From the NCBI GenBank assembly GCA_028706745.1, contig JAQTVM010000014.1, forward strand, positions 1 through 42,765: a DNA stretch of 42,765 nucleotides. The letters are read 5' to 3'. This DNA comes from Candidatus Nanoarchaeia archaeon. GTDB taxonomy: Archaea; Nanobdellota; Nanobdellia; SCGC-AAA011-G17; GW2011-AR17. The notes beneath the pieces were generated by a model. It worked only from the letters and a program-made list of their open reading frames with translations, did not search any database and was not told the origin of the DNA. A program made the position numbers and the translations under genes. The number at the start of each line of letters is the position of its first letter. Within the stretch, counting starts at the first letter, position 1. Shown one piece after another: positions 1,594 to 17,671 of this stretch.

Positions 1594-2160
1594 AAACCTT
1601 ATATTCTTAACCTGCTTTTCAAGATTATTTAAAGAGCCGTTATTGCTTATCACATAATCCGCTTTCTTCGCCTTTTTGTCCTGCGGCATTTGGATATTGA
1701 TTCTCTTTAAAGCATCCTCTTTTGAAAGCCCCTTGTTTCTTTTAAGAATTCTTTTTAGCTGAATATCTTTATCAGCGCAAACCATTATTGTCTTATCCAT
1801 TTTCTTGTCCATCCCTGATTCAAAAAGCAGGGCAGCTTCAATAATGGTATTTTCATTGCCTCTTACAAGCCTTGCAATCTCCTTATCCACGTAAGGCCAT
1901 ACAATTGATTCAAGCTTTTGCATCTGATTTTTATCAGCAAATACAATTTTTGCCAGTTTATGCCTGTTTACACTCAAATGAAGAAAGTCAATTGAAGAAA
2001 TTCCAAAGGCAAAAAGAATATTCAGTTTTACAACAATGCTTTCAGCATATATCTTATGAACAACCTTGTCAGCATCTATCACTTTTGCGCCTAACGCCTT
2101 AAAAAAAGAGGCAGCCGCCGACTTTCCTGTTGCTATGTTGCCTGTAAGCCCGATTAGCAT
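1576..2160 (-). CDS. coaE: Dephospho-CoA kinase (bacterial-type CoaE)
   Basis: CoaE phosphorylates the 3'-OH of dephospho-CoA, the last step of CoA synthesis. The 194 residues start with a P-loop (GLTGNIATGKS, residues 4-14), then VIDAD (28-31) for substrate binding. IIEAALLFESG is the conserved mid-domain strand, and the C-terminal lid is basic. Length and motif order match bacterial and eukaryotic CoaE. Many archaea use an unrelated GTP-dependent enzyme for this step, so this copy suggests transfer. Some nucleotide kinases are similar, but the DAD motif and LFESG favour CoaE. Confidence 0.85.
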   Translation of the reverse strand: MLIGLTGNIATGKSAAASFFKALGAKVIDADKVVHKIYAESIVVKLNILFAFGISSIDFLHLSVNRHKLAKIVFADKNQMQKLESIVWPYVDKEIARLVRGNENTIIEAALLFESGMDKKMDKTIMVCADKDIQLKRILKRNKGLSKEDALKRINIQMPQDKKAKKADYVISNNGSLNNLEKQVKNIRFLIQSH

Positions 2161-2196
2161 ATTATTTTAAGGCTTAGTAAGAATTTAAGCATTTGC

Positions 2197-3975
2197 TTAG
2201 TCTGTATAATAATATCTTCCCTTGCTTCTCTGTTCTGAATCCAGCTGCGAGCCCGGCTTGTTTATTCTGGGGCGCTTTGTCTCATTGTCCTGCCTGTAAG
2301 TGATGTCAAGCATCTTGAGAACCTCGTTCATGCCCTCTGTTTTTGTTACAGGCCCGAACACGTGCCCTTCAATGCCAGGCTTGCCTTCAAATACAAGCAT
2401 TGAATCTCCGATGTAATCAATGAACTGCACATCGTGGTCAACAACAATTGCGCATTTCTCGTTCTTTATGACAAAATCCTTTATCACTTCAGCAACATTC
2501 AGCCTGTCTTCAACATCAATGAATGCAGACGGCTCGTCAAGAGCATAAATTGTGCAGTCCTGCAAAAGAGTAACTGCTATATACAGCTTCTGCAATTCTC
2601 CCCCTGATAATCCTTTTATTTCATTGTCCAAAAGCTTTCCAAGCCCTAATTTTTCCAACAGTGTCTGCCTGTACCAGCCGGACATATACTTTAATCCGCC
2701 TGCCTTCTGCAATGCTTCTTTCACAGTGCCGCCAATGTCAGAAGAGGGGTACTGCACTTTGTAAGAAATCTTAAGCTTTCCTATCTCGCCATTATCCGGA
2801 ATTAACTCGCCTGCAAGCATTTTCAAAAAAGTAGTCTTTCCCAAGCCGTTTGCGCCCATTACGGCAAGAACTTCCCCCTTTTTCACAAGCCCTGCAGTTG
2901 TCTTTAATTTAAATGTCTCAAACTTCTTTTCCATCCCAGGAAACTTTAACAATGTCTCCTTGCTTGCGTATCTTTCAGAGGCATACTGGAAAAAGCGCAT
3001 TGCATAATCCCTGAACCTTACATTGTCGTCAGGCAAAAATCCGTCAAGATACTCGTTTATGCCCCGCCTTACTGCCTTTGACTGGGATATGACTCCATAG
3101 CAGCCTGCTTCCCCGTAAACAATCTGGATTTCATCTGAGATATAATCCAATGTAGCCAAATCATGCTCTACAACCAGCACAGCTGTTTTTTCATCTGCCA
3201 AAGAACGTATGAGCTTTGCAGCCTTTATTCTTGTTGTGATATCCAAAAATGAAGCAGGCTCATCAAAATAATACACCTCTGCCTTTTTTGAGGCGGCAGC
3301 TATTATTGCCACTTTCTGCAGTTCCCCGCCTGAAAGCATTGAAATCTTCCTGTCAGCAAGATGGGATGCATCCAAATCATTGAGCAAATCAAAAGCAATC
3401 TTTTTCTCGTCAACTTTTGTCAGCAGTTCTTTTACAGTGCCTTCATACTGTTTTGGAAGCAGGTCAATCCTCTGGGGCTTGTAGGCAACCTTCACATTGC
3501 CTGAATACAATCTCCTGAAATAGTCGCCCAGGGACACATTGCTGTATTTTTCTATTATATCCTCTTCTTTCGGCTGGGCAGAAACATTGCCAAGATTCGG
3601 CTTCAAGATTCCTGCAAGAATGTTCAATGCAGTTGACTTCCCGATGCCGTTTCTTCCCAGGATTCCAACAACTTTTCCTGCTTTTGGAATTGGAAGATGA
3701 AACAATTCAAACGCGTTTTTGCCGAACCTGTGAATCGGGTCATCCTTGAGCTTTTCAGGCAGGTTGACTATTGAAATGCACTGGACAGGGCACTTCCTTA
3801 CGCAAATGCCGCAGCCTGTGCAGAGTTTCTCATCTATTACGGGCTTCTTGTCTTTCTCATTTATCCCAATGCATTCCTGTCCTGTCCTGTTCACAGGGCA
3901 GTAGTGTCCGCATATGAAGTCGCAGCCCTTGGTGTTCCTGCATTTCAGCCTTTCCAGTATTGCCACCCTTGCCAT
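2197..3975 (-). CDS. rli1: ABCE1/Rli1 ribosome-recycling ATPase
   Basis: This 592-residue soluble twin-ATPase splits 70S ribosomes after termination in archaea. The N-terminal Fe-S domain carries Cys at 12, 18, 22, 26 and 35 plus CTGCGICVRKCPVQC (residues 52-66). Nucleotide-binding domain 1 has Walker A GRNGIGKST (107-115), a signature LSGGE and YYFDEPASF. Domain 2 has GANGLGKTT, LSGGE and YALDEPSAF. There are no membrane segments. The length is family-typical. A T-rich, TATA-containing stretch upstream at about 3976-4020 serves as promoter and also separates it from the divergent CRISPR operon. Confidence 0.96.
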   Translation of the reverse strand: MARVAILERLKCRNTKGCDFICGHYCPVNRTGQECIGINEKDKKPVIDEKLCTGCGICVRKCPVQCISIVNLPEKLKDDPIHRFGKNAFELFHLPIPKAGKVVGILGRNGIGKSTALNILAGILKPNLGNVSAQPKEEDIIEKYSNVSLGDYFRRLYSGNVKVAYKPQRIDLLPKQYEGTVKELLTKVDEKKIAFDLLNDLDASHLADRKISMLSGGELQKVAIIAAASKKAEVYYFDEPASFLDITTRIKAAKLIRSLADEKTAVLVVEHDLATLDYISDEIQIVYGEAGCYGVISQSKAVRRGINEYLDGFLPDDNVRFRDYAMRFFQYASERYASKETLLKFPGMEKKFETFKLKTTAGLVKKGEVLAVMGANGLGKTTFLKMLAGELIPDNGEIGKLKISYKVQYPSSDIGGTVKEALQKAGGLKYMSGWYRQTLLEKLGLGKLLDNEIKGLSGGELQKLYIAVTLLQDCTIYALDEPSAFIDVEDRLNVAEVIKDFVIKNEKCAIVVDHDVQFIDYIGDSMLVFEGKPGIEGHVFGPVTKTEGMNEVLKMLDITYRQDNETKRPRINKPGSQLDSEQRSKGRYYYTD

Positions 3976-4038
3976 AGTGTATTAAGAGGAAAGAGATTGT
4001 TTATAAATCTAATCTTAGCTGTACGTAAACGCAAAAAA

Positions 4039-4064
4039 GGCGGAGACGCCATAAGTTTTATAAG
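4039..4064 (+). promoter_or_regulatory. Promoter of the cas operon
   Basis: TATA-like TTTTATAAG lies at 4056-4064, 32 bases before the cas1 ATG. It is directly preceded by the hairpin GGCG-GAGA-CGCC (4039-4050). A similar GC-rich mini-hairpin followed by a TATA box occurs upstream of S17e (131-156). The whole cas operon probably starts here. Confidence 0.5.
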
Positions 4065-4095
4065 GGATTGATTTTTTGAAGTTTTGGGGGTATAT

Positions 4096-5079
4096 ATGCA
4101 GGTTATAATAAACCAGTTTGGAACTTTTGTAGGAAAGAAAGAAAATAGGTTTACAATAGTCTATAAAGACGTAAAAGACGAACATTCAGCAGACAAAGTT
4201 GACCAAATAAAGATTCTTTGCGCATCATCTATTTCTTCTGAAGCTGTAAAACTGGCTGTAAACAATAATATTGACATTGTGTTTTTGGGCAAATTCGGAG
4301 AACCTTACGCAAGAATTTATCCTTGTAAACTCGGCGGAACTACTTTAACTAGAAAAGAGCAGGCGAAAGCATATCTTAATGATAAAGGTCCATTTTTAGT
4401 CAAAAAATTTCTTGAAGCAAAACTAAAGAATCAATTGTTTCATCTTAAACGGCTGAATAAGACAAGAGAAGGTGCTTTCTTATCGGAAATAGCAAAGATA
4501 GAGGCTAATTTGGGCAATTTTTCAGAGTTTCCAACCGGAGATATGGATAAAATAAGGAATAACTATCTTGGATATGAAGGAAATTCTGCCGCAATATATT
4601 TTTCTTGCTTAAATCAGATTGCTAAATTTTCAAATAGGGATCCTAAATCAAGAGACATATTTAATATTGCATTGAATTATGGCTATGGCATACTTTATTC
4701 TGAAATTGAAAGGGCGTGTATTGTAGCCGGGCTCGACCCTTATCTTGGATTTTTGCATACAGACAGGTATGGAAAGCCATCGATGGTTTTAGATTTAATA
4801 GAGCAGTTCCGCCCAATTATTGACAAAGCTATTTTGAAGCTGTTTGTGCAAAAAAGGGTAGATATAAAAGATTTGGAAATGGTAGAGCAGCAGATAGTGC
4901 TTACAAAAGAAGGCAGGTCAAAGATTATTTCAGAAGTGCTTGAATCATTGAACCTGCAAATGAGTTATAGAGGAAAGAATCTTAGCGTCATGCAGATTAT
5001 ACAAGAGCAAGCTCGAGAAGTTGCAAGGTTTATTGTCGGGCAGTCTGAGAATTATGAGCCATTTGTATGGAGAGAATAA
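4096..5079 (+). CDS. cas1: CRISPR-associated endonuclease Cas1
   Basis: Cas1 is the integrase subunit that inserts new spacers together with Cas2. The protein is 327 residues from the ATG at 4096. An in-frame TTG at 4084 would add four residues, but the ATG after GGGGGT fits better and gives the usual short N-terminus MQVIINQFGTFVG. The metal ligands of the family are visible: Glu161 in LGYEGNSAA, His221 in FLHTDRYGKP, and Asp233/Glu236 in DLIEQFRP. The catalytic set is therefore complete. It is the first gene of the cas operon, and cas2 begins one base after its stop. Confidence 0.96.
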   Translation: MQVIINQFGTFVGKKENRFTIVYKDVKDEHSADKVDQIKILCASSISSEAVKLAVNNNIDIVFLGKFGEPYARIYPCKLGGTTLTRKEQAKAYLNDKGPFLVKKFLEAKLKNQLFHLKRLNKTREGAFLSEIAKIEANLGNFSEFPTGDMDKIRNNYLGYEGNSAAIYFSCLNQIAKFSNRDPKSRDIFNIALNYGYGILYSEIERACIVAGLDPYLGFLHTDRYGKPSMVLDLIEQFRPIIDKAILKLFVQKRVDIKDLEMVEQQIVLTKEGRSKIISEVLESLNLQMSYRGKNLSVMQIIQEQAREVARFIVGQSENYEPFVWRE

Positions 5080-7722: not shown

Positions 7723-9027
7723 GTTGCAGAAGGCGAATATAGGGATTAAGGAATGCAACCGTAGACCCTAGCTTTAAAGCAAAGCTAAAGAAGGAGGGTT
7801 GCAGAAGGCGAATATAGGGATTAAGGAATGCAACTGACAGAAGGAACAATGGCTTCTGCTAATTGGATAACAGTTGCAGAAGGCGAATATAGGGATTAAG
7901 GAATGCAACTTACCTTATAATCTTCAGGAAGCTGGCTTGAATATTTGTTGCAGAAGGCGAATATAGGGATTAAGGAATGCAACTAATGCTCGGGAGTTTC
8001 CCCCTTTAAAACCATCTGCGGTTGCAGAAGGCGAATATAGGGATTAAGGAATGCAACCCAAGTTCATACGGCCACTGCTGCAAAGCTGGCAGGGGTTGCA
8101 GAAGGCGAATATAGGGATTAAGGAATGCAACTACGGCGTTGAAGATGCCACAGAAACACCCGATTATAGTTGCAGAAGGCGAATATAGGGATTAAGGAAT
8201 GCAACTATGTCATGTATCTTAACCCGAAGCAAAACCAATAAAAGTTGCAGAAGGCGAATATAGGGATTAAGGAATGCAACTACTCTGCTGTTGGTTAATA
8301 TTCTGCGTTCCCTGCTGTGTTGCAGAAGGCGAATATAGGGATTAAGGAATGCAACAAAGAAGCTTCTAAAATAATAATCAAACATCACAAAGGTTGCAGA
8401 AGGCGAATATAGGGATTAAGGAATGCAACAACAGGATTATTGAGCATCTTGACAATTACAGGTTTTAGTTGCAGAAGGCGAATATAGGGATTAAGGAATG
8501 CAACTGGCAAAAGCTGCATAAACACATCAGATTCGAATCTTTGTTGCAGAAGGCGAATATAGGGATTAAGGAATGCAACACCGCATTTATATCCGTCTTT
8601 AATTCTGTTGCTATTTGTTGCAGAAGGCGAATATAGGGATTAAGGAATGCAACTATCGTGGCAAAACATCTATGTAATATAGGAGAGTGCGTTGCAGAAG
8701 GCGAATATAGGGATTAAGGAATGCAACATGCAGTTTATCCTTCTTTCTTGGTGCTTAATGCAAAGGTTGCAGAAGGCGAATATAGGGATTAAGGAATGCA
8801 ACATCCCGTCGGGCAATCTTGATTTATTGCGTGAACAAAGTTGCAGAAGGCGAATATAGGGATTAAGGAATGCAACGTCTGCTAGGAATATTTTTCGGAA
8901 TCATTATTGCAACATGTTGCAGAAGGCGAATATAGGGATTAAGGAATGCAACCGACCTCCTTAACAACAAAGCGCCACTTCCAACGCCTAGTTGCAGAAG
9001 GCGAATATAGGGATTAAGGAATGCTCA
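7723..9027 (+). CRISPR. CRISPR array, 18 repeats of 37 bases and 17 spacers
   Basis: Repeats start at 7723, 7798, 7873, 7947, 8021, 8095, 8169, 8244, 8319, 8393, 8468, 8543, 8617, 8691, 8766, 8840, 8916 and 8991. Each begins GTTGCAGAAGGC and ends GGAATGCAAC, so the six terminal bases at each end are self-complementary. Seventeen are identical by eye. The last one reads ATGCTCA instead of ATGCAAC at its end, marking the trailer. Spacers are 37-39 bases and all different. The leader side faces the cas genes. The repeat closely resembles, from memory, that of the characterised Cas14a1 system. Confidence 0.98.
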
Positions 9028-9111
9028 CGAAGTTTTTGTCATAAAAGCAGAGCAGATTTCGTGAGAGGTGGGTTTACGAGTCTTACCCTTCCTGTTTTGT
9101 ATCTGCTCTGC
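9024..9111. other. Interleaved inverted repeats at the array trailer (pseudoknot-like)
   Basis: CTCACGAA (9024-9031) matches TTCGTGAG (9058-9065), and GCAGAGCAGAT (9047-9057) matches ATCTGCTCTGC (9101-9111). The order A-B-A'-B' with B ending exactly where A' starts is the layout of an H-type pseudoknot, or of two mutually exclusive hairpins. A smaller hairpin GGGT/ACCC (9070-9073, 9085-9088) lies in the last loop. The first arm begins in the degenerate end of the final repeat. Confidence 0.65.
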
Positions 9112-9116
9112 ACCTT

Positions 9117-9182
9117 ATTTTAGAGTTTATAATCTAAAATTCAAAAAAAGAACAAGCATAACACTTTTAAACCCTATATATC
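9117..9182 (+). promoter_or_regulatory. Inverted repeat and promoter before the DUF2130-like gene
   Basis: ATTTTAGA (9117-9124) and TCTAAAAT (9133-9140) form an 8-bp inverted repeat. TATA-like TTTTAAAC (9165-9172) and CTATATATC (9174-9182) follow, 14-31 bases before the ATG at 9196. The gene therefore has its own promoter and is probably nearly leaderless. Confidence 0.5.
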
Positions 9183-10482: not shown

Positions 10483-10510
10483 ATATTAGTATGAATTATC
10501 ATACTAATAT
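10483..10510. promoter_or_regulatory. 28-base palindromic operator overlapping a start codon
   Basis: Perfect 12-base arms ATATTAGTATGA (10483-10494) and TCATACTAATAT (10499-10510) surround ATTA. The right arm covers the first two bases of the ATG at 10509, and TTTAAATA (10478-10485) is the TATA box. A protein bound here would block the transcription start; the HTH-nucleotidyltransferase that follows is the obvious candidate. Confidence 0.75.
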
Positions 10511-11045
10511 GGAAGACAGGATAAAACATCTCTTTTTTGAAAGCCCGGCAAGGCAATGGCACTTTGAAGAGATTGTAAAAAAAGCAAAGCTAAGCAGGGA
10601 AAGGGCAAATTACTACCTTAAACAGCTGATAAAGGAAGGCTATATCAAAAGAGTAAAGCCGAAAGGCGAGATGCCTTATTACATTGCCCTCTATGAATCA
10701 GAGAAGTTTAAAAATGAAAAGCGCATATACGGGCTCGCATTGCTTCAAAAAAGCGGGCTTTTCGCACATATCTGCGAAAACAAGAGAATAAAATCAGCCA
10801 TATTGTTTGGCAGCTTTGCAAGCGGATATTGGCTTGATGAAAGCGATATAGACCTCTTCATTTATGGGAAGGCAGATAATTTTGAGAAAAGTAAATACGA
10901 ACTGATTCTGGGCAGGGAACTACAACTGTTCTGCTACGATGACAAAGATAAAATGAAAAGGGAGCTGGCGCCAGGGCTTCCGTCTAACATTGCAGCAGGC
11001 TTTAAGATAAAAGGGAATTTAGAGCCATTTTTGGTTAATGTATAA
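10509..11045 (+). CDS. Winged-helix regulator fused to a MNT-type nucleotidyltransferase
   Basis: The protein is 178 residues from ATG 10509; a start at 10491 is possible but lies inside the operator. Residues 1-60 form a winged helix (HFEEIVKKAKLSRERANYYLKQLIKEGYI). Residues 95-120 carry the nucleotidyltransferase motif LFGSFASG...DESDIDLF with Gly101-Ser102 and Asp113/Asp115. Such HTH-MNT proteins are often antitoxins or self-regulating. No HepT-type partner follows, since the next gene is an unrelated regulator. The palindrome over its start supports autoregulation. The substrate is unknown. Confidence 0.8.
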   Translation: MEDRIKHLFFESPARQWHFEEIVKKAKLSRERANYYLKQLIKEGYIKRVKPKGEMPYYIALYESEKFKNEKRIYGLALLQKSGLFAHICENKRIKSAILFGSFASGYWLDESDIDLFIYGKADNFEKSKYELILGRELQLFCYDDKDKMKRELAPGLPSNIAAGFKIKGNLEPFLVNV

Positions 11046-12776: not shown

Positions 12777-13340
12777 TTATTCCTCCTTTTTTGTTGACTT
12801 ATGCCACCTGATGAATTCTTCAAGCGCCTTTGCCCTGTGCGAATGCTTTTCCTTTTCCTCCTTGCCCATCTCAGAGAATGTTCTTGATTCTCCATCCGGA
12901 ATGAAAATAGCGTCGTATGCAAAATCAATGACTTCGCTTGGCTTTTCTGCAATCCTTCCTTCGCATTCGCCGATGAATGCCACAGGATGCATTTTTGGAG
13001 TTGCAAACGCAAATGAAGTAACGAATTTTGCCTTTCTTGGCTTTCCTTCCAATAGCTTTAATATGCCGTTAATCCCTACGCCGTTGAACACAACCTTCGC
13101 ATTAGGGCCCGGAAAATCCCTGTATGCTTCAAAATAAATGCCTGTGTCCTCAACCAAAACAGGCTTATTGAGTATTTTTAATGCAGAAAGAGCTTTTGCA
13201 ATGGAAACCTCTTTTTCTGTTTTGAGCTTCTGCTCAACCACGTCAACGTCAGACCATTCAAGCTCAATGCCGTGCCTGTCAGTGACTTTCTTGACTTCCT
13301 CGAACTTGTCCCTGTTTCCTGTTACGAAGAATAGTTTCAT
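12777..13340 (-). CDS. rdgB: XTP/dITP diphosphatase (RdgB/Ham1)
   Basis: The enzyme hydrolyses non-canonical purine triphosphates (XTP, dITP, ITP) to monophosphates, keeping them out of nucleic acids. The 187 residues show the family signatures: FVTGNRDKFEEV at the N-terminus, VEDTGIYF, FPGPNAKVVF, FAYDAIFIP and the C-terminal SHRAKALEEF. The length is typical. A TATA box lies about 25 bases upstream (TTTATAAATC on the minus strand near 13365), giving a near-leaderless transcript. The stop is 1 base before the next gene. Confidence 0.94.
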   Translation of the reverse strand: MKLFFVTGNRDKFEEVKKVTDRHGIELEWSDVDVVEQKLKTEKEVSIAKALSALKILNKPVLVEDTGIYFEAYRDFPGPNAKVVFNGVGINGILKLLEGKPRKAKFVTSFAFATPKMHPVAFIGECEGRIAEKPSEVIDFAYDAIFIPDGESRTFSEMGKEEKEKHSHRAKALEEFIRWHKSTKKEE

Positions 13341-13384
13341 AAGATAGATAGAGAGATATAAGATTTATAAACCTTGCTTCTTCT

Positions 13385-13515
13385 GAGCAGATGTTTTTCC
13401 GGCAACCCGCCATTTCAAGCAGTTTCTTGATTGCCTCATTCTACGCCATTCCTGCCGCGAATACAAAAGCAGTCGTGATGAACATCGCGAAATTGTCTAT
13501 CATTTCCTTTTTCAT
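13385..13515 (-). pseudogene. Decayed DUF5654-like small membrane protein, interrupted by TAG
   Basis: From ATG 13515 the minus strand reads MKKEMIDNFAMFITTAFVFA then AGMA, then TAG at 13443-13441, then NEAIKKLLEMAGCRKN in the same frame. Archaeal DUF5654 proteins, as I remember them, have ITTAFG...ALAWNEAIK, with Trp exactly where the TAG stands, so a TGG to TAG change is likely. The tail runs into the rdgB promoter. It could still make a 24-residue peptide. It lies beside another gene fragment, consistent with a decaying junction. Confidence 0.6.
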
Positions 13516-13528
13516 GCTAACTCACAAT

Positions 13529-13628
13529 AGCTTAGCACTCTTTACCCTTTCCATGAAATAATCATCCTTGACAACCGCTTTCAGCAGGCTCTTTGCGTCC
13601 CTGAACTTCCTCTTTGCAAGGACGTAAG
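13529..13628 (-). pseudogene. Orphan copy of the 3' end of cca
   Basis: These 100 bases match 14811-14910, the end of the intact CCA-adding enzyme gene, at 92 of 100 positions. Translated in the same frame they give AKRKFRDAKSLLKAVVKDDY then FMERVKSAKLL and a stop. Only one residue differs (Ala for Ser), so six of eight base changes are silent. Similarity ends abruptly at 13628. It is the left member of a direct repeat that brackets the fic gene. Confidence 0.85.
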
Positions 13629-13637
13629 TGCGCTATC

Positions 13638-13675
13638 TGTTACATAAATGGAATATCTATGACAAAAATGTAACA
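13638..13675. repeat. Inverted repeat TGTTACAT/ATGTAACA
   Basis: Perfect 8-base arms at 13638-13645 and 13668-13675 have a 22-base centre. The repeat lies just inside the left cca fragment and upstream of the fic promoter. It could be an operator or a remnant of a mobile end. Confidence 0.4.
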
Positions 13676-13679
13676 ACGG

Positions 13680-13720
13680 GTTTCCCCTTACACTATGTAT
13701 ATTCATTTGTAGGGGGAAAC
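13680..13720. repeat. Left 37-base inverted element beside the fic promoter
   Basis: GTTTCCCCTTACA (13680-13692) and TGTAGGGGGAAAC (13708-13720) match at 12 of 13 positions, with a 15-base A+T-rich centre. The same structure in reverse orientation occurs after fic at 14764-14800. The fic TATA box TTTAAATA (13722-13729) follows at once, so the right arm would also occupy the BRE position. Confidence 0.7.
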
Positions 13721-13752
13721 ATTTAAATACTTAAACTGCGCTCTTAAGGAGC

Positions 13753-14763
13753 ATGGCATTCATACATGTAAAGCGGGTAGGGGACACAAGCTATTACACT
13801 TTAAGGGTTTCCACAAGAAAGGGGGACAGAGTTATTACAAGGGACTTATGCAATCTGGGCAGCGACCTTTCAAAAGTTGATTTGGGCAGCCTTGAAAAAA
13901 AGTATCATGATGAAATAAGAAAATCTTATAAAACCCTCAATAGATTTCTTGAAACAAACCATTATCTTGAAAAGGCAAAGAAAGAAAAGCCCGTTTCAGA
14001 TGCATATTTCAATAAAGAGCAGATGCTTGAGATAAGCGCAATACATTTGCATTATCGTGCGCGCTTCCTAAAGCTTGATAATCTTACGCAGACAGAAATT
14101 ATGGAAAACTTTACGCTTAATTTTGCCGTAAACAGCACCTCCATTGAAGGCAATACAATCACAATGAAGCAGGCGCATGCCTTGTTTAAAGAAGATATTA
14201 TGCCTAAGGACAGGACTTTGCGTGAAGTGCATGACCTTACAAACACAAAGAAAGCATGGGAATATCTAATGGCAAAAAAGCCCAAGATAGATATTGGCCT
14301 TGTTGAATATTTGCATGATATGCTTCTCGAAGGCATTGATGCAAGAAAAGGGTTTAGAATGCATGATATTCGCATATTCGGGCAGCCATTTAAGCCTACT
14401 CCTGCAAGGTATGTTATACCCGACGTAAAAATGTTATTGAGATGGTATGAAGAAAATAAAAACAAAATACACCCTTTGGCTTTATCTGCTTTTGTTCACC
14501 ATAAATTTGAGAACATACACCCTTTTTCAGACGGCAACGGCAGGACAGGCAGAATGCTTATGAGCTATATCTTATTCCTGTCAGGATATCCTCCAATGGT
14601 AATTTCCAGACGATTCCGGAAAGAATATCTTGATGTAATGAATGAAGCTGATAAATCACTTAAGCAGGGCATTACAAAAGTAGATATGAATTATTACAAA
14701 GAACTTTTGGAATTCATCTATTCGCAATACAGGCTGTCTTATTGGGACATATTTCTTGTATAA
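13753..14763 (+). CDS. Fic-domain AMP-transferase (adenylyltransferase)
   Basis: Fic enzymes transfer AMP or related groups onto Ser/Thr/Tyr of target proteins. The 336 residues have an N-terminal beta-rich region (1-45). The inhibitory helix motif SxxxEG is at 128-133 (STSIEG), and the catalytic motif HPFSDGNGRTGR at 256-267, with His256 as catalytic base. Both signatures are intact, so it should be an autoinhibited, active Fic protein. AAGGAG lies just before ATG 13753. No antitoxin-like partner is adjacent. The gene is bracketed by inverted elements and by duplicated cca ends, which suggests it arrived as a module. Confidence 0.92.
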   Translation: MAFIHVKRVGDTSYYTLRVSTRKGDRVITRDLCNLGSDLSKVDLGSLEKKYHDEIRKSYKTLNRFLETNHYLEKAKKEKPVSDAYFNKEQMLEISAIHLHYRARFLKLDNLTQTEIMENFTLNFAVNSTSIEGNTITMKQAHALFKEDIMPKDRTLREVHDLTNTKKAWEYLMAKKPKIDIGLVEYLHDMLLEGIDARKGFRMHDIRIFGQPFKPTPARYVIPDVKMLLRWYEENKNKIHPLALSAFVHHKFENIHPFSDGNGRTGRMLMSYILFLSGYPPMVISRRFRKEYLDVMNEADKSLKQGITKVDMNYYKELLEFIYSQYRLSYWDIFLV

Positions 14764-14800
14764 TTCCCCCTACATTTATAAATATCAATTGTAAGGGGAA
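14764..14800. repeat. Right 37-base inverted element after fic
   Basis: TTCCCCCTACA (14764-14774) and TGTAAGGGGAA (14790-14800) flank 15 A+T-rich bases. The arm sequences, lengths and spacing equal those of 13682-13718 but in reverse orientation. It lies between the convergent fic and cca stops, so it can also act as a two-way terminator. Confidence 0.7.
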
Positions 14801-14803
14801 AAA

Positions 14804-16039
14804 TTAAAGCAGCTTAGCGCTTTTAACCCTTTCCATGAAATAATCGTCCTTGACGACTGATTTCAGCAGGCTCTTTGCGTCCCTGAACTTTCTCTTTGCA
14901 AGGACGTAAGCTCTTCCATTCTCTTCAAGAACTTCTCTCTTGTGCCAGGATTCCCTAAATTGCTTTAATCTTTCTGTTTCATTTACAGGCGGCCCGCGGT
15001 GCTTGTAAAGCAGTGAAAGCTTTTCTTTCGGCACAATGAACCAGAACAATGCTTCCTTCTCCCATTCCCATCCTGAATCAACTACCTTGAACTCGCCTGA
15101 CAAAAGCTCTTTCTTTGCGTGCTCAAAGCATTTCATTAATTTCGCGCCCACAATGTCTTTTTTTCCGTCAACAGGCTTTGCCTCTATCATGAAAACAGCA
15201 TTCTTGCCTGCTTTCTTCTTCAATACAGCCTTTGTGATGTTTTCCTTTTCAAAAAACTTCAATGACGGCTTTTTAAGATAAGATTTAGCCAATTCAATCG
15301 CCTTTCCATAAACTTCCCAGGACAATCCGGCTGCGGCATTTCTCTCCTTTTGCACAGGGTCAATTAAAATTAAAGGAGAAAACAGCTTTGCCTTGTTTAA
15401 CTCAGCAATCAATGCCTTTCCCTTATGATATCCTTCAATATCAATGACAACTCTTTTGGAAGTATCCCATTTTGCAATGTTCTGCATAAGCTCTTCAAAG
15501 CCGGAATAATATACTGTGAGAATCTCCAGCACATATCCTGAAAAGCCCTGTATGTAAGACTCAGCGCCATAGATTCTGTTTGCCTTGAAAAATGCCTTCG
15601 CCATCCGCATGTCGTCAAGCAATTGCCTGTGGCGAGAAACCCACTGGACATGCAATAACGAGACGTCTGTTATGTTTTCTGCCTCATCTGAGTGATTGAT
15701 TTCAATAATAGGAACTATCTCAATTGTGAAGTCCTTCATCTTCATTTGAAAATAATCCCTGCTGCCGTGCAGTAATTCAATGTCCTTAAAGCTCTTCTTA
15801 AGCTCTTTTTCAAGAAGTATTGAAATATTCTTGCCTGAATAAGATGCTTTTGAGAATTTCACGTAGATGTCAACATCGTGGTTGCCTTTCAACCATGTTC
15901 CTTTTGCAAAAGAGCCGCCAAGAACAGGTGTTGCGTTTGGAATCCTTATCTTTTGCATTACAGCTGACGCTATTGTTAATACGCTTTTCTCTTCCGCTGA
16001 AGAGGGCTTTATTTTCTTTAAGACGTCGTCCCTGAGCAT
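14804..16039 (-). CDS. cca: CCA-adding enzyme, archaeal class I
   Basis: The enzyme adds or repairs the CCA 3' end of tRNA without a template. The 411 residues start with a nucleotidyltransferase domain: LGGSFAKGTWLKGNHDVDIY (40-59), with Asp55 and Asp57 as metal ligands. The helical tRNA-binding and tail domains follow, including SYIQGFSGYVLEIL and DPVQKERNAAAGLS, both typical of archaeal CCA enzymes. The length is slightly under the usual 430-450. Its last 100 bases recur at 13529-13628. Confidence 0.94.
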   Translation of the reverse strand: MLRDDVLKKIKPSSAEEKSVLTIASAVMQKIRIPNATPVLGGSFAKGTWLKGNHDVDIYVKFSKASYSGKNISILLEKELKKSFKDIELLHGSRDYFQMKMKDFTIEIVPIIEINHSDEAENITDVSLLHVQWVSRHRQLLDDMRMAKAFFKANRIYGAESYIQGFSGYVLEILTVYYSGFEELMQNIAKWDTSKRVVIDIEGYHKGKALIAELNKAKLFSPLILIDPVQKERNAAAGLSWEVYGKAIELAKSYLKKPSLKFFEKENITKAVLKKKAGKNAVFMIEAKPVDGKKDIVGAKLMKCFEHAKKELLSGEFKVVDSGWEWEKEALFWFIVPKEKLSLLYKHRGPPVNETERLKQFRESWHKREVLEENGRAYVLAKRKFRDAKSLLKSVVKDDYFMERVKSAKLL

Positions 16040-16297: not shown

Positions 16298-17671
16298 ATG
16301 GACAAGCAAGAGCTAAAACTTATCCTGAACGAAGGAGAAGGATACAAGATTGAATTCAAGGAAAGCATCACTGACATAGAAAGAGAAATAGTGGCTTTTG
16401 CAAACTCGTCAGGCGGAAAGATTCTATTGGGAATATCAAACGACGGAAAAATAAAAGGGATAAGCATTACAAACGAGTTAAAATCCAGAATACAGGACAT
16501 GGCAAACCACTGCAAGCCAAAAGCCCATATCCTGTTTGAAGCAATAGACAATGTCCTGATAATCAATGTAAAGGAAGGGATTGACAAGCCTTACAGCTGT
16601 TCGTCAGGATTCTACATAAGAATTGGCCCTAATGCACAGAAGATGGCAAGAGATGAGATAATAGAATTCATCAAGTCAGAAGGAAAAATCCGCTTTGATG
16701 AGCTTATAGAGCCAAGATTCAGCTATCCGAAAGACATTGACAAAGGAAAGATAAGGGCATTCCTAAGGCTTGCAGGCATTTCGGCAAAAACAAGCGCTGA
16801 AAAGGCATTAATCAACCTTAATGCGGCTGAACAGCAGGAAGGAAAGATAATAGTAAACAATGCAGGCGTATTATTTTTTGCAAAACAGCCGCAAAGGTTC
16901 ATTCCTTGGTCAGTGTTCACTGTTGCGCTTTTCAAGGACATGGAAGGCGTTGACATAATAGACAGAAAAGAGATTACAGGAAGCCTGTTTGAGATTGTAG
17001 ACAGCGTAATGGACTTTGTAAAGCTTTACGCAAAGGTGGCTTACAGGTTTACAGGCAACCCGCAAAGGGAAAACATATACGAATACCCTTTTGATGCTAT
17101 AAGGGAAGCTGTGATAAACTCAGTGGCGCATAAGTATTACTTTGAGCACGGGCATAACACTATCTTAAGGTTTCTTCCAGACAGGATAAGGATTGAAAAC
17201 TATTGGGCAAAACCCAAAACATTCAGGATAGGAAGCACTGTGCTGAGAAGAAACCCGATTATCTGCGAATTGTTTGCAAGAATCCATTTTGGCGAGAAAA
17301 TGGGCACAGGATTCAGGAGAATGAAAGACATTTGCAAAAGGGAAAATTCACCAATGCCTGAAATTGAGTACGACGAGTGCTATTTCTATATCATATTCAA
17401 GCAAAGCCATGAATATTTGAAGATGGCTGGCAAAAAACAGATCGAACAAGAAGACGATATATTAAACACAAGACAACAAAATGCCTTCTTATTTGCTCAA
17501 AAAAATGGCTCAATTTCCATACAAGAGTATATAGAAATAAATAAGGTAAGCGACAAAACTGCAAGAATAGATCTAAAGGAAATGGTAAAAATGGGCATTT
17601 TCAAAAAAGAAGGCATCACTACCGGGCTTAAGTTTAAGCTAACTTCGGTAAACTTCGGTAATCTTCGGTAA
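16298..17671 (+). CDS. AlbA_2/Schlafen-domain protein with GHKL-like region and winged helix
   Basis: The protein is 457 residues. Residues 10-115 form an AlbA_2 (divergent AAA-4, Schlafen) domain: EGYKIEFKESI, FANSSGGKILLGI, GFYIRIGPNAQKM. Residues about 230-360 resemble the ATPase-like C-terminal region of RecG-like AlbA_2 proteins (AIREAVINSVAHKYY, KMGTGFRRM). A winged helix closes the protein (about 395-450). These proteins are commonly annotated as ATP-dependent DNA helicase-like or transcription regulators; the true role is unclear. The last codons consist of a 10-base tandem repeat. Confidence 0.85.
   Translation: MDKQELKLILNEGEGYKIEFKESITDIEREIVAFANSSGGKILLGISNDGKIKGISITNELKSRIQDMANHCKPKAHILFEAIDNVLIINVKEGIDKPYSCSSGFYIRIGPNAQKMARDEIIEFIKSEGKIRFDELIEPRFSYPKDIDKGKIRAFLRLAGISAKTSAEKALINLNAAEQQEGKIIVNNAGVLFFAKQPQRFIPWSVFTVALFKDMEGVDIIDRKEITGSLFEIVDSVMDFVKLYAKVAYRFTGNPQRENIYEYPFDAIREAVINSVAHKYYFEHGHNTILRFLPDRIRIENYWAKPKTFRIGSTVLRRNPIICELFARIHFGEKMGTGFRRMKDICKRENSPMPEIEYDECYFYIIFKQSHEYLKMAGKKQIEQEDDILNTRQQNAFLFAQKNGSISIQEYIEINKVSDKTARIDLKEMVKMGIFKKEGITTGLKFKLTSVNFGNLR
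17641..17670 (+). repeat. Three tandem 10-base units at the 3' end of the AlbA_2 gene
   Basis: AACTTCGGTA, AACTTCGGTA and ATCTTCGGTA follow one another and include the stop codon. Because the unit is 10 bases, loss or gain of one unit shifts frame and changes the C-terminus. Confidence 0.8.

What the first reader, a model, noticed from the sequence alone, without database searches (positions are those of the whole stretch)
13529..14910. Fic gene bracketed by duplicated cca ends and inverted 37-base elements
Positions 13529-13628 and 14811-14910 are direct repeats of the cca 3' end (92% identical, mostly silent changes, stop codon kept). Inside them, 13682-13718 and 14764-14800 are mirror copies of one element with 15-base centres. 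fic fills the space. The nested arrangement suggests integration of a module at the 3' end of cca, with the host tail left behind and a diverged allele brought in.
Basis: partly seen in the sequence, partly recalled or inferred. Interest (0 to 1): 0.76.

Follow-up and report, generated by a model that had tools for sequence, protein, structure and literature searches.

The report
Mobile Fic module at cca tail
In this tiny archaeon a toxin-like Fic gene, bracketed by two copies of its own probable control site, has been slipped in behind an essential tRNA-repair gene by a process that duplicated the last 100 bases of that gene, and the same design recurs across the archaeal phylum.

Summary
In detail: a 100-bp, 92% direct repeat of the cca 3' end and two palindromic 37-mers bracketing fic.

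(1) The 37-mer (E) belongs to fic. Fifty Woesearchaeota homologues carry it about 32 nt before the ATG, against the TATA box; 18 of 53 carry a second copy behind the stop. E varies specifically with the Fic N-terminal domain, so E is probably a self-read operator.

(2) In other genomes E1 and E2 are direct repeats. One species has a single E exactly where two sisters have E-fic-E.

(3) Outside E-fic-E, direct repeats of target DNA (30-111 bp, often gene or tRNA 3' ends) flank 8 of 54 loci, against 1 of 2862 control pairs. This matches "insertion with long target duplication", described for restriction-modification genes.

(4) A sister species carries an MNT/HEPN-type pair in the same cca slot behind its own tail stub; an MNT operator remnant lies beside the window's stub.

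(5) The cca tail is a recombinant tract, but both tail copies are equally "foreign", so which was native is unresolved.

Verdict: an exchangeable toxin-module slot; new variant of a known kind.

The parts
14804..16039 (-). cca (archaeal CCA-adding enzyme), intact host gene; its 3' end is the target
   Evidence: TIGR03671 E=5.7e-84 (above cut-off); PF09249
14811..14910 (-). intact-gene copy of the duplicated cca tail; lies in a recombinant tract beginning about 121 nt from the 3' end
13522..13628 (-). orphan cca tail (stub) with its own stop codon; 92% identical to the intact tail over 13529-13628
13634..13675 (.). remnant of the upstream operator of an MNT operon (34/39 identical over 13637-13675 to the region upstream of MNT in sister G001; also matches G002, where it lies beside its cca stub)
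   Evidence: score 58 versus at most 30 in 400 shuffles
13682..13718 (.). E1, palindromic element (11-nt arms, 15-nt centre), probable fic operator abutting BRE/TATA
13722..13729 (+). TATA-like box TTTAAATA of the fic promoter
   Evidence: sequence; same layout in homologues
13753..14763 (+). fic, 336 aa, class II Fic protein (inhibitory motif STSIEG, active-site motif HPFSDGNGRTGR)
13753..13902 (+). N-terminal three-strand beta-sheet domain of Fic (residues 1-50); probable E-reading domain
   Evidence: structure models; co-variation with E
14764..14800 (.). E2, second copy of the palindromic element, starting at the base after the fic stop and ending 3 nt before the cca stop codon

Best explanation
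E1-fic-E2 is a small horizontally moving module: a self-regulated class II Fic toxin-like gene. It was inserted at the 3' end of cca by recombination with incoming DNA that carried a cca 3' end, leaving cca intact and one extra cca tail on the far side (insertion with long target duplication). Steps shown: duplicated tail, recombinant tract in cca, different cargo in the same slot in a sister species, remnant of an earlier MNT operon beside the stub, and recurrence of target duplications and of a single-E empty site elsewhere. Steps inferred: E is the operator that the Fic N-terminal domain binds to repress its own promoter; the second E lets the module be deleted exactly by recombination between the two copies, leaving one E; and the joining reaction is homologous recombination at the cca tail, with or without an illegitimate second crossover, not a dedicated integrase.
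For: Tail repeats and elements. Same slot, different cargo: G002 has cca, MNT, a 133-aa partner and a cca stub; G001 and G003 have fic-E2-cca. MNT operator remnant beside the window's stub. Recombinant cca tail: (no permutation of 2000 reached the observed value). E in 50 homologues, at 30-35 nt from the ATG in the 47 measured, and a second copy in 18 of 53. E-arm differences follow Fic residues 1-50 after allowing for the rest of the protein (partial r 0.31, none of 2000 permutations; no window clear of residues 1-50 above 0.115). Precise empty site: G099 and G101 have E-fic-E, and G100 has one E between the same flanks (84-90% identical to G101). Target duplications at 8 of 54 loci versus 1 of 2862 cross pairs, none inverted. 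Several are gene 3' ends including the stop (L168, L195, L179) or tRNA 3' parts (L187, L007, L176). Sparse distribution, 44 of 371 genomes.
Against: No empty cca site with one tail was found in the genus. The stub is not of the sister-species (native) type, so the direction of import is unresolved. No circular or transferred form was seen. Binding of E by Fic is statistical only; the N-terminal domain has no significant match in Pfam or PDB. Only about a third of modules have the second E. All genomes appear to be metagenome assemblies.
Confidence: 0.62

Rival explanations
1. A site-specific recombinase supplied in trans (an integrase or Xer-like enzyme) inserts these modules into gene and tRNA 3' ends, the duplicated tails being att sites; the modules are tiny satellites of an integrative element.
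For: Targets are often gene 3' ends and tRNA 3' ends; the target gene is kept intact; E abuts a tRNA 3' end within 2 nt at two fic loci and one solo site (L007, L176, L236).
Against: Duplication lengths (9-111 bp) and targets vary with no shared core seen; no recombinase in the module; repeats are often 80-93% identical, like alleles, not identical att cores; MNT modules without E show the same duplications.
Confidence: 0.2
2. Two separate accidents: a local tandem duplication of the cca tail, followed by fic landing between the copies, with no import of a cca allele.
For: Tandem duplications are common; the L168 repeat (63 bp) is 100% identical, as a fresh duplication would be.
Against: The window copies differ mostly at silent sites, as two separately selected alleles would; the intact tail is a recombinant tract; the same arrangement recurs around unrelated toxin modules far more than in control pairs.
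Confidence: 0.1
3. E1 and E2 are terminal inverted repeats of a DDE-type transposon whose transposase is lost or acts in trans.
For: Paired 37-mers bracket one gene, and solo copies exist elsewhere.
Against: The copies are direct repeats where orientation can be told; E1 sits at a fixed 30-35 nt from the ATG in all 47 measured and only a third have E2; flanking duplications are of variable, long length.
Confidence: 0.05
4. Assembly chimera in one metagenome bin.
For: The genome is a 32-contig assembly.
Against: G001 and G003 independently have fic-E2-cca, and G002 has a cca stub joined to the same kind of operator.
Confidence: 0.03

Closest known systems
Restriction-modification gene units that insert with long target duplication (Nobusato 2000 and Furuta 2010, as summarised in PMC3874152 and PMC3031569)
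   Same: Self-sufficient addiction-type genes without a transposase, flanked by direct repeats of about 100 bp of target DNA, length variable; PMC3874152 notes that some RM units also bear imperfect inverted repeats.
   Different: Cargo is a single Fic gene (or an MNT pair) in DPANN archaea; targets are often gene 3' ends including the stop codon; paired operator-like palindromes and a single-palindrome empty site.
CccR, a class II Fic protein that represses its own promoter through a palindrome (PMC9755527)
   Same: Class II Fic protein with a separate DNA-binding domain; spaced palindrome beside the core promoter.
   Different: CccR uses a C-terminal HTH and a palindrome with a 26-nt spacer; here the candidate DNA-reading part is an N-terminal beta-sheet domain, the spacer is 14-15 nt, and a second copy often follows the gene. 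Binding is untested here.
Sequential displacement of effector-immunity modules by homology-facilitated illegitimate recombination (PMC5361080)
   Same: Repeated replacement of toxin-type modules at one chromosomal slot anchored by a conserved sequence, leaving remnants of earlier occupants.
   Different: The anchor here is the 3' end of a housekeeping gene, and the remnants are gene tails and an operator.
Integrative elements at tRNA and protein-gene 3' ends (general knowledge)
   Same: Insertion restores the target gene 3' end and leaves a copy on the far side.
   Different: No integrase gene and no shared att core found; modules are about 1.2 kb.

Membership tests
Class II Fic proteins | Fic core motif HPFx(D/E)GNGRxxR | tested here: met
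   HPFSDGNGRTGR, residues 256-267, nearly all invariant; Pfam Fic E=1.1e-18
Class II Fic proteins | Inhibitory motif (S/T)xxxE(G/N) N-terminal to the Fic motif in the same chain | tested here: met
   S128-TSI-E132-G133; E132 and G133 invariant in 12 homologues
Class II Fic proteins | AMP transfer to a target | not testable with these tools
   needs a bench assay
Insertion with long target duplication (as in RM units) | Direct repeats of target DNA, roughly 100 bp and variable, flanking the unit | tested here: met
   window 100 bp; others 30-111 bp
Insertion with long target duplication (as in RM units) | A related genome with a single copy of the target and no insert | tested here: inconclusive
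   not found at cca; at another locus the empty site keeps one E
Insertion with long target duplication (as in RM units) | The mobile unit is a restriction-modification system | tested here: not met
   unit is Fic or MNT; so not filed as an RM unit
DDE transposon / MITE | Terminal inverted repeats with constant short target duplication | tested here: not met
   direct orientation of E, variable long duplications
Integrase-dependent genomic island | Integrase gene or recognisable att core | tested here: not met
   window insert holds only fic; no common core seen by eye among repeats; an enzyme acting in trans is not excluded
Self-regulating toxin module | Operator at own promoter bound by own product | tested here: inconclusive
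   position and co-variation support it; binding untested

The most novel reading that the evidence does not exclude
E-fic-E is a minimal mobile genetic element in which the Fic protein itself, through its N-terminal DNA-binding domain, pairs the two E copies and promotes exact excision and re-insertion at E or at gene 3' ends, without any known recombinase.
Probability: 0.07. Interest if true: 0.92.

Novelty: new variant of a known kind. Interest (0 to 1): 0.68.

Why it matters
It would extend "insertion with long target duplication" from bacterial restriction-modification genes to single-gene Fic and MNT modules in DPANN archaea, show how toxin-like genes could spread in small genomes without a transposase while sparing the target gene, and give a sequence signature (orphan gene tails beside a toxin module) that can be searched for. 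It also offers a testable archaeal case of a Fic protein that may control its own gene through a palindrome, with a beta-sheet domain that matches no known family.

Tried and rejected
Transposon TIR model: rejected because E copies are direct repeats with a fixed distance to the ATG. Native-stub / foreign-intact polarity: tested by tail distances and not supported. N-terminal domain homology: no Pfam match for the window sequence, no significant PDB fold match (weak look-alikes such as integrase arm-binding domains 3rmp and 3jtz at E about 2 were not used). Rfam for the unidentified repeats in L013, L184, L192 and others: no RNA family at the repeats. A second empty site by flank search in the genus of G177: no orthologous flank found. 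Solo E sites against fic flanks: a solo site between shared flanks on both sides only at G100; G149 shares one flank (70%, 998 bp) with the fic locus L073 and was not followed. Bacterial Fic loci as a no-repeat control: unsuitable, since some show the same design.

Full report
Observation. The repeats and elements exist as described. The cca tail repeat is 100 nt at 92%. Read in frame the two copies differ at 8 sites, 6 silent, with one amino-acid change (S/A) and a stop codon kept in both. The two 37-mers are each palindromic, so their mutual orientation in the window cannot be decided (centre match 10/17 direct, 11/17 inverted).

What the window is. The window is a contig of a 1.24-Mb, nearly complete assembly. 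The nearest named relatives found with the Fic protein are MAGs labelled Woesearchaeota, Nanoarchaeota and Diapherotrites. fic encodes a 336-aa protein with a class II inhibitory motif and a full Fic motif. The structure model is confident (pLDDT 92). Solved relatives by sequence are FICD, the C. elegans homologue and bacterial Fic proteins, and by fold FICD and BT_2513. An N-terminal three-strand sheet (residues 2-36) has no significant family or fold match.

The element belongs to fic. Fic of this kind occurs in 44 of 371 genomes of the phylum. Fifty of the 51 homologues of at least 40% identity have, by program, a palindrome TWCCCYYTACA-N14/15-TGTARRGGGWA or a variant of it; a looser copy is visible by eye in the remaining one. 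In the 47 measured it lies 30-35 nt before the ATG, directly before a TATA-like box. That position covers the archaeal BRE/TATA region, as a repressor site would (inference from promoter anatomy). Eighteen of 53 have a second strict copy within 150 nt after the stop. Where copies are close they are direct repeats including the non-conserved centre: 14/14 in L008, L012 and L183, 14/15 in L155, 13/14 in L009. The element differs between genomes but agrees within a genome. Its arm differences follow Fic residues 1-50 after correcting for the rest of the protein (partial r 0.31, none of 2000 permutations), and no window clear of residues 1-50 shows this. I take this as evidence that the N-terminal domain reads E. 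A known class II Fic, CccR, represses its own promoter through a spaced palindrome (PMC9755527).

Solo elements and an empty site. Pattern searches over 371 genomes found E mostly at fic, with none in the reversed control. Several copies lie away from any fic. The decisive case is one genus: G099 and G101 hold flank-E-fic-E-flank, while G100 holds the same flanks (84-90% identical to G101) with exactly one E between them. G100 and G101 are closer to each other than to G099, so loss of fic in G100 by recombination between the E copies is the simpler history. In the window's own genome a solo E lies within 5 nt of the stop of a HEPN gene on contig C30.

Target duplications. Comparing 700 nt upstream of E1 with 900 nt downstream of fic at 54 loci gave same-strand repeats of 41 bits or more at 8 loci, against 1 of 2862 mismatched pairs, and no inverted repeat above 33 bits. 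The window is the strongest. In L168 the repeat is the last 63 nt of the upstream gene, stop included (a phosphoglycerate mutase by my reading). In L195 it is the tail of a HAD-like gene, close against E1 and E2. In L179 there are three copies of one gene's tail, with fic between the first two and an MNT/HEPN-like pair between the second and the intact gene. In L187 it is part of a tRNA-Gly gene. Short copies of a tRNA 3' end also recur downstream in L007 and L176. Some repeats (L013, L184, L192) could not be identified. MNT/HEPN loci show the same design (L260, L264, L288), as do some bacterial Fic loci (L114 beside a ParB-like gene, L127 with a tRNA fragment).

History of the window slot. 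rdgB and cca lie in the same order in G000, G002 and G003 with different material between. G002 has cca, a 133-aa partner gene, MNT and a cca stub. The 42 nt beside the stub there match 13634-13675 of the window, and the region upstream of an MNT gene in G001 matches 34 of 39 nt. So an MNT module probably stood here before fic. The intact cca tail is a recombinant tract: informative sites switch from G001-like to G002-like about 121 nt from the 3' end (61/278 versus 18/23, none of 2000 permutations), about the length of the repeat. The stub is also G002-like (92%, against 81% to G001).

Mechanism. Most likely DNA carrying a cca tail plus a toxin module recombined at the cca tail, leaving cca whole and an extra tail on the far side. 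This resembles insertion with long target duplication, reported for restriction-modification units at about 100 bp (PMC3874152; PMC3031569), and homology-facilitated illegitimate recombination proposed for module displacement (PMC5361080). Whether a recombinase acts in trans is open. I found no paper on this Fic group in DPANN archaea, within an open-access library only.

Limits. The genomes are draft assemblies. Fic toxicity, E binding and module movement are untested. The G002 partner gene has no Pfam match and is called HEPN-type only from its place beside MNT. Names of target genes other than cca and tRNAs are by eye.

Noticed in passing
window 13340-13520, minus strand: Between rdgB and the cca stub lies a short reading frame (MKKEMIDNFAMFITTAFVFAAGMA*NEAIKKLLEMAG...) broken by an internal stop; looks like a small membrane-protein pseudogene.
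   Followed up: no
L179 (G114:C3) 2118-4271: Array of gene tail, fic, gene tail, MNT/HEPN-like pair, intact gene: two toxin modules separated by copies of one gene's 3' end.
   Followed up: partly
L114 4796-5924; L127 4856-5813; L149 4902-5770: Bacterial Fic genes are also bracketed by direct repeats: a ParB-like gene tail, a tRNA fragment, and a terminator-like hairpin.
   Followed up: partly
G013:C25 (L240) and G044:C16 (L295): A 2.9-kb fic region is 97% identical between MAGs of different families: recent transfer or bin contamination.
   Followed up: partly
L236 (G343:C38) 2249-2407: A solo E begins 2 nt after a tRNA gene 3' end with no fic nearby.
   Followed up: no
L018, L019, L189: More distant Fic homologues (33-37%) lack E but have repeated TGTAAYCCCTAAA motifs before and sometimes after the gene.
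   Followed up: no
window 16298-17671: Schlafen/AlbA_2-type protein directly beyond cca, and a lone MNT-like gene at 10491-11045.
   Followed up: no
genus g1 (G000-G003): Very many MNT-type nucleotidyltransferase genes, 16-24 matches per genome.
   Followed up: no
L065 (G003:C14) 8500-9160: In sister G003 the fic gene at cca has lost its 5' part and is joined to unrelated sequence, while E2 is kept.
   Followed up: partly
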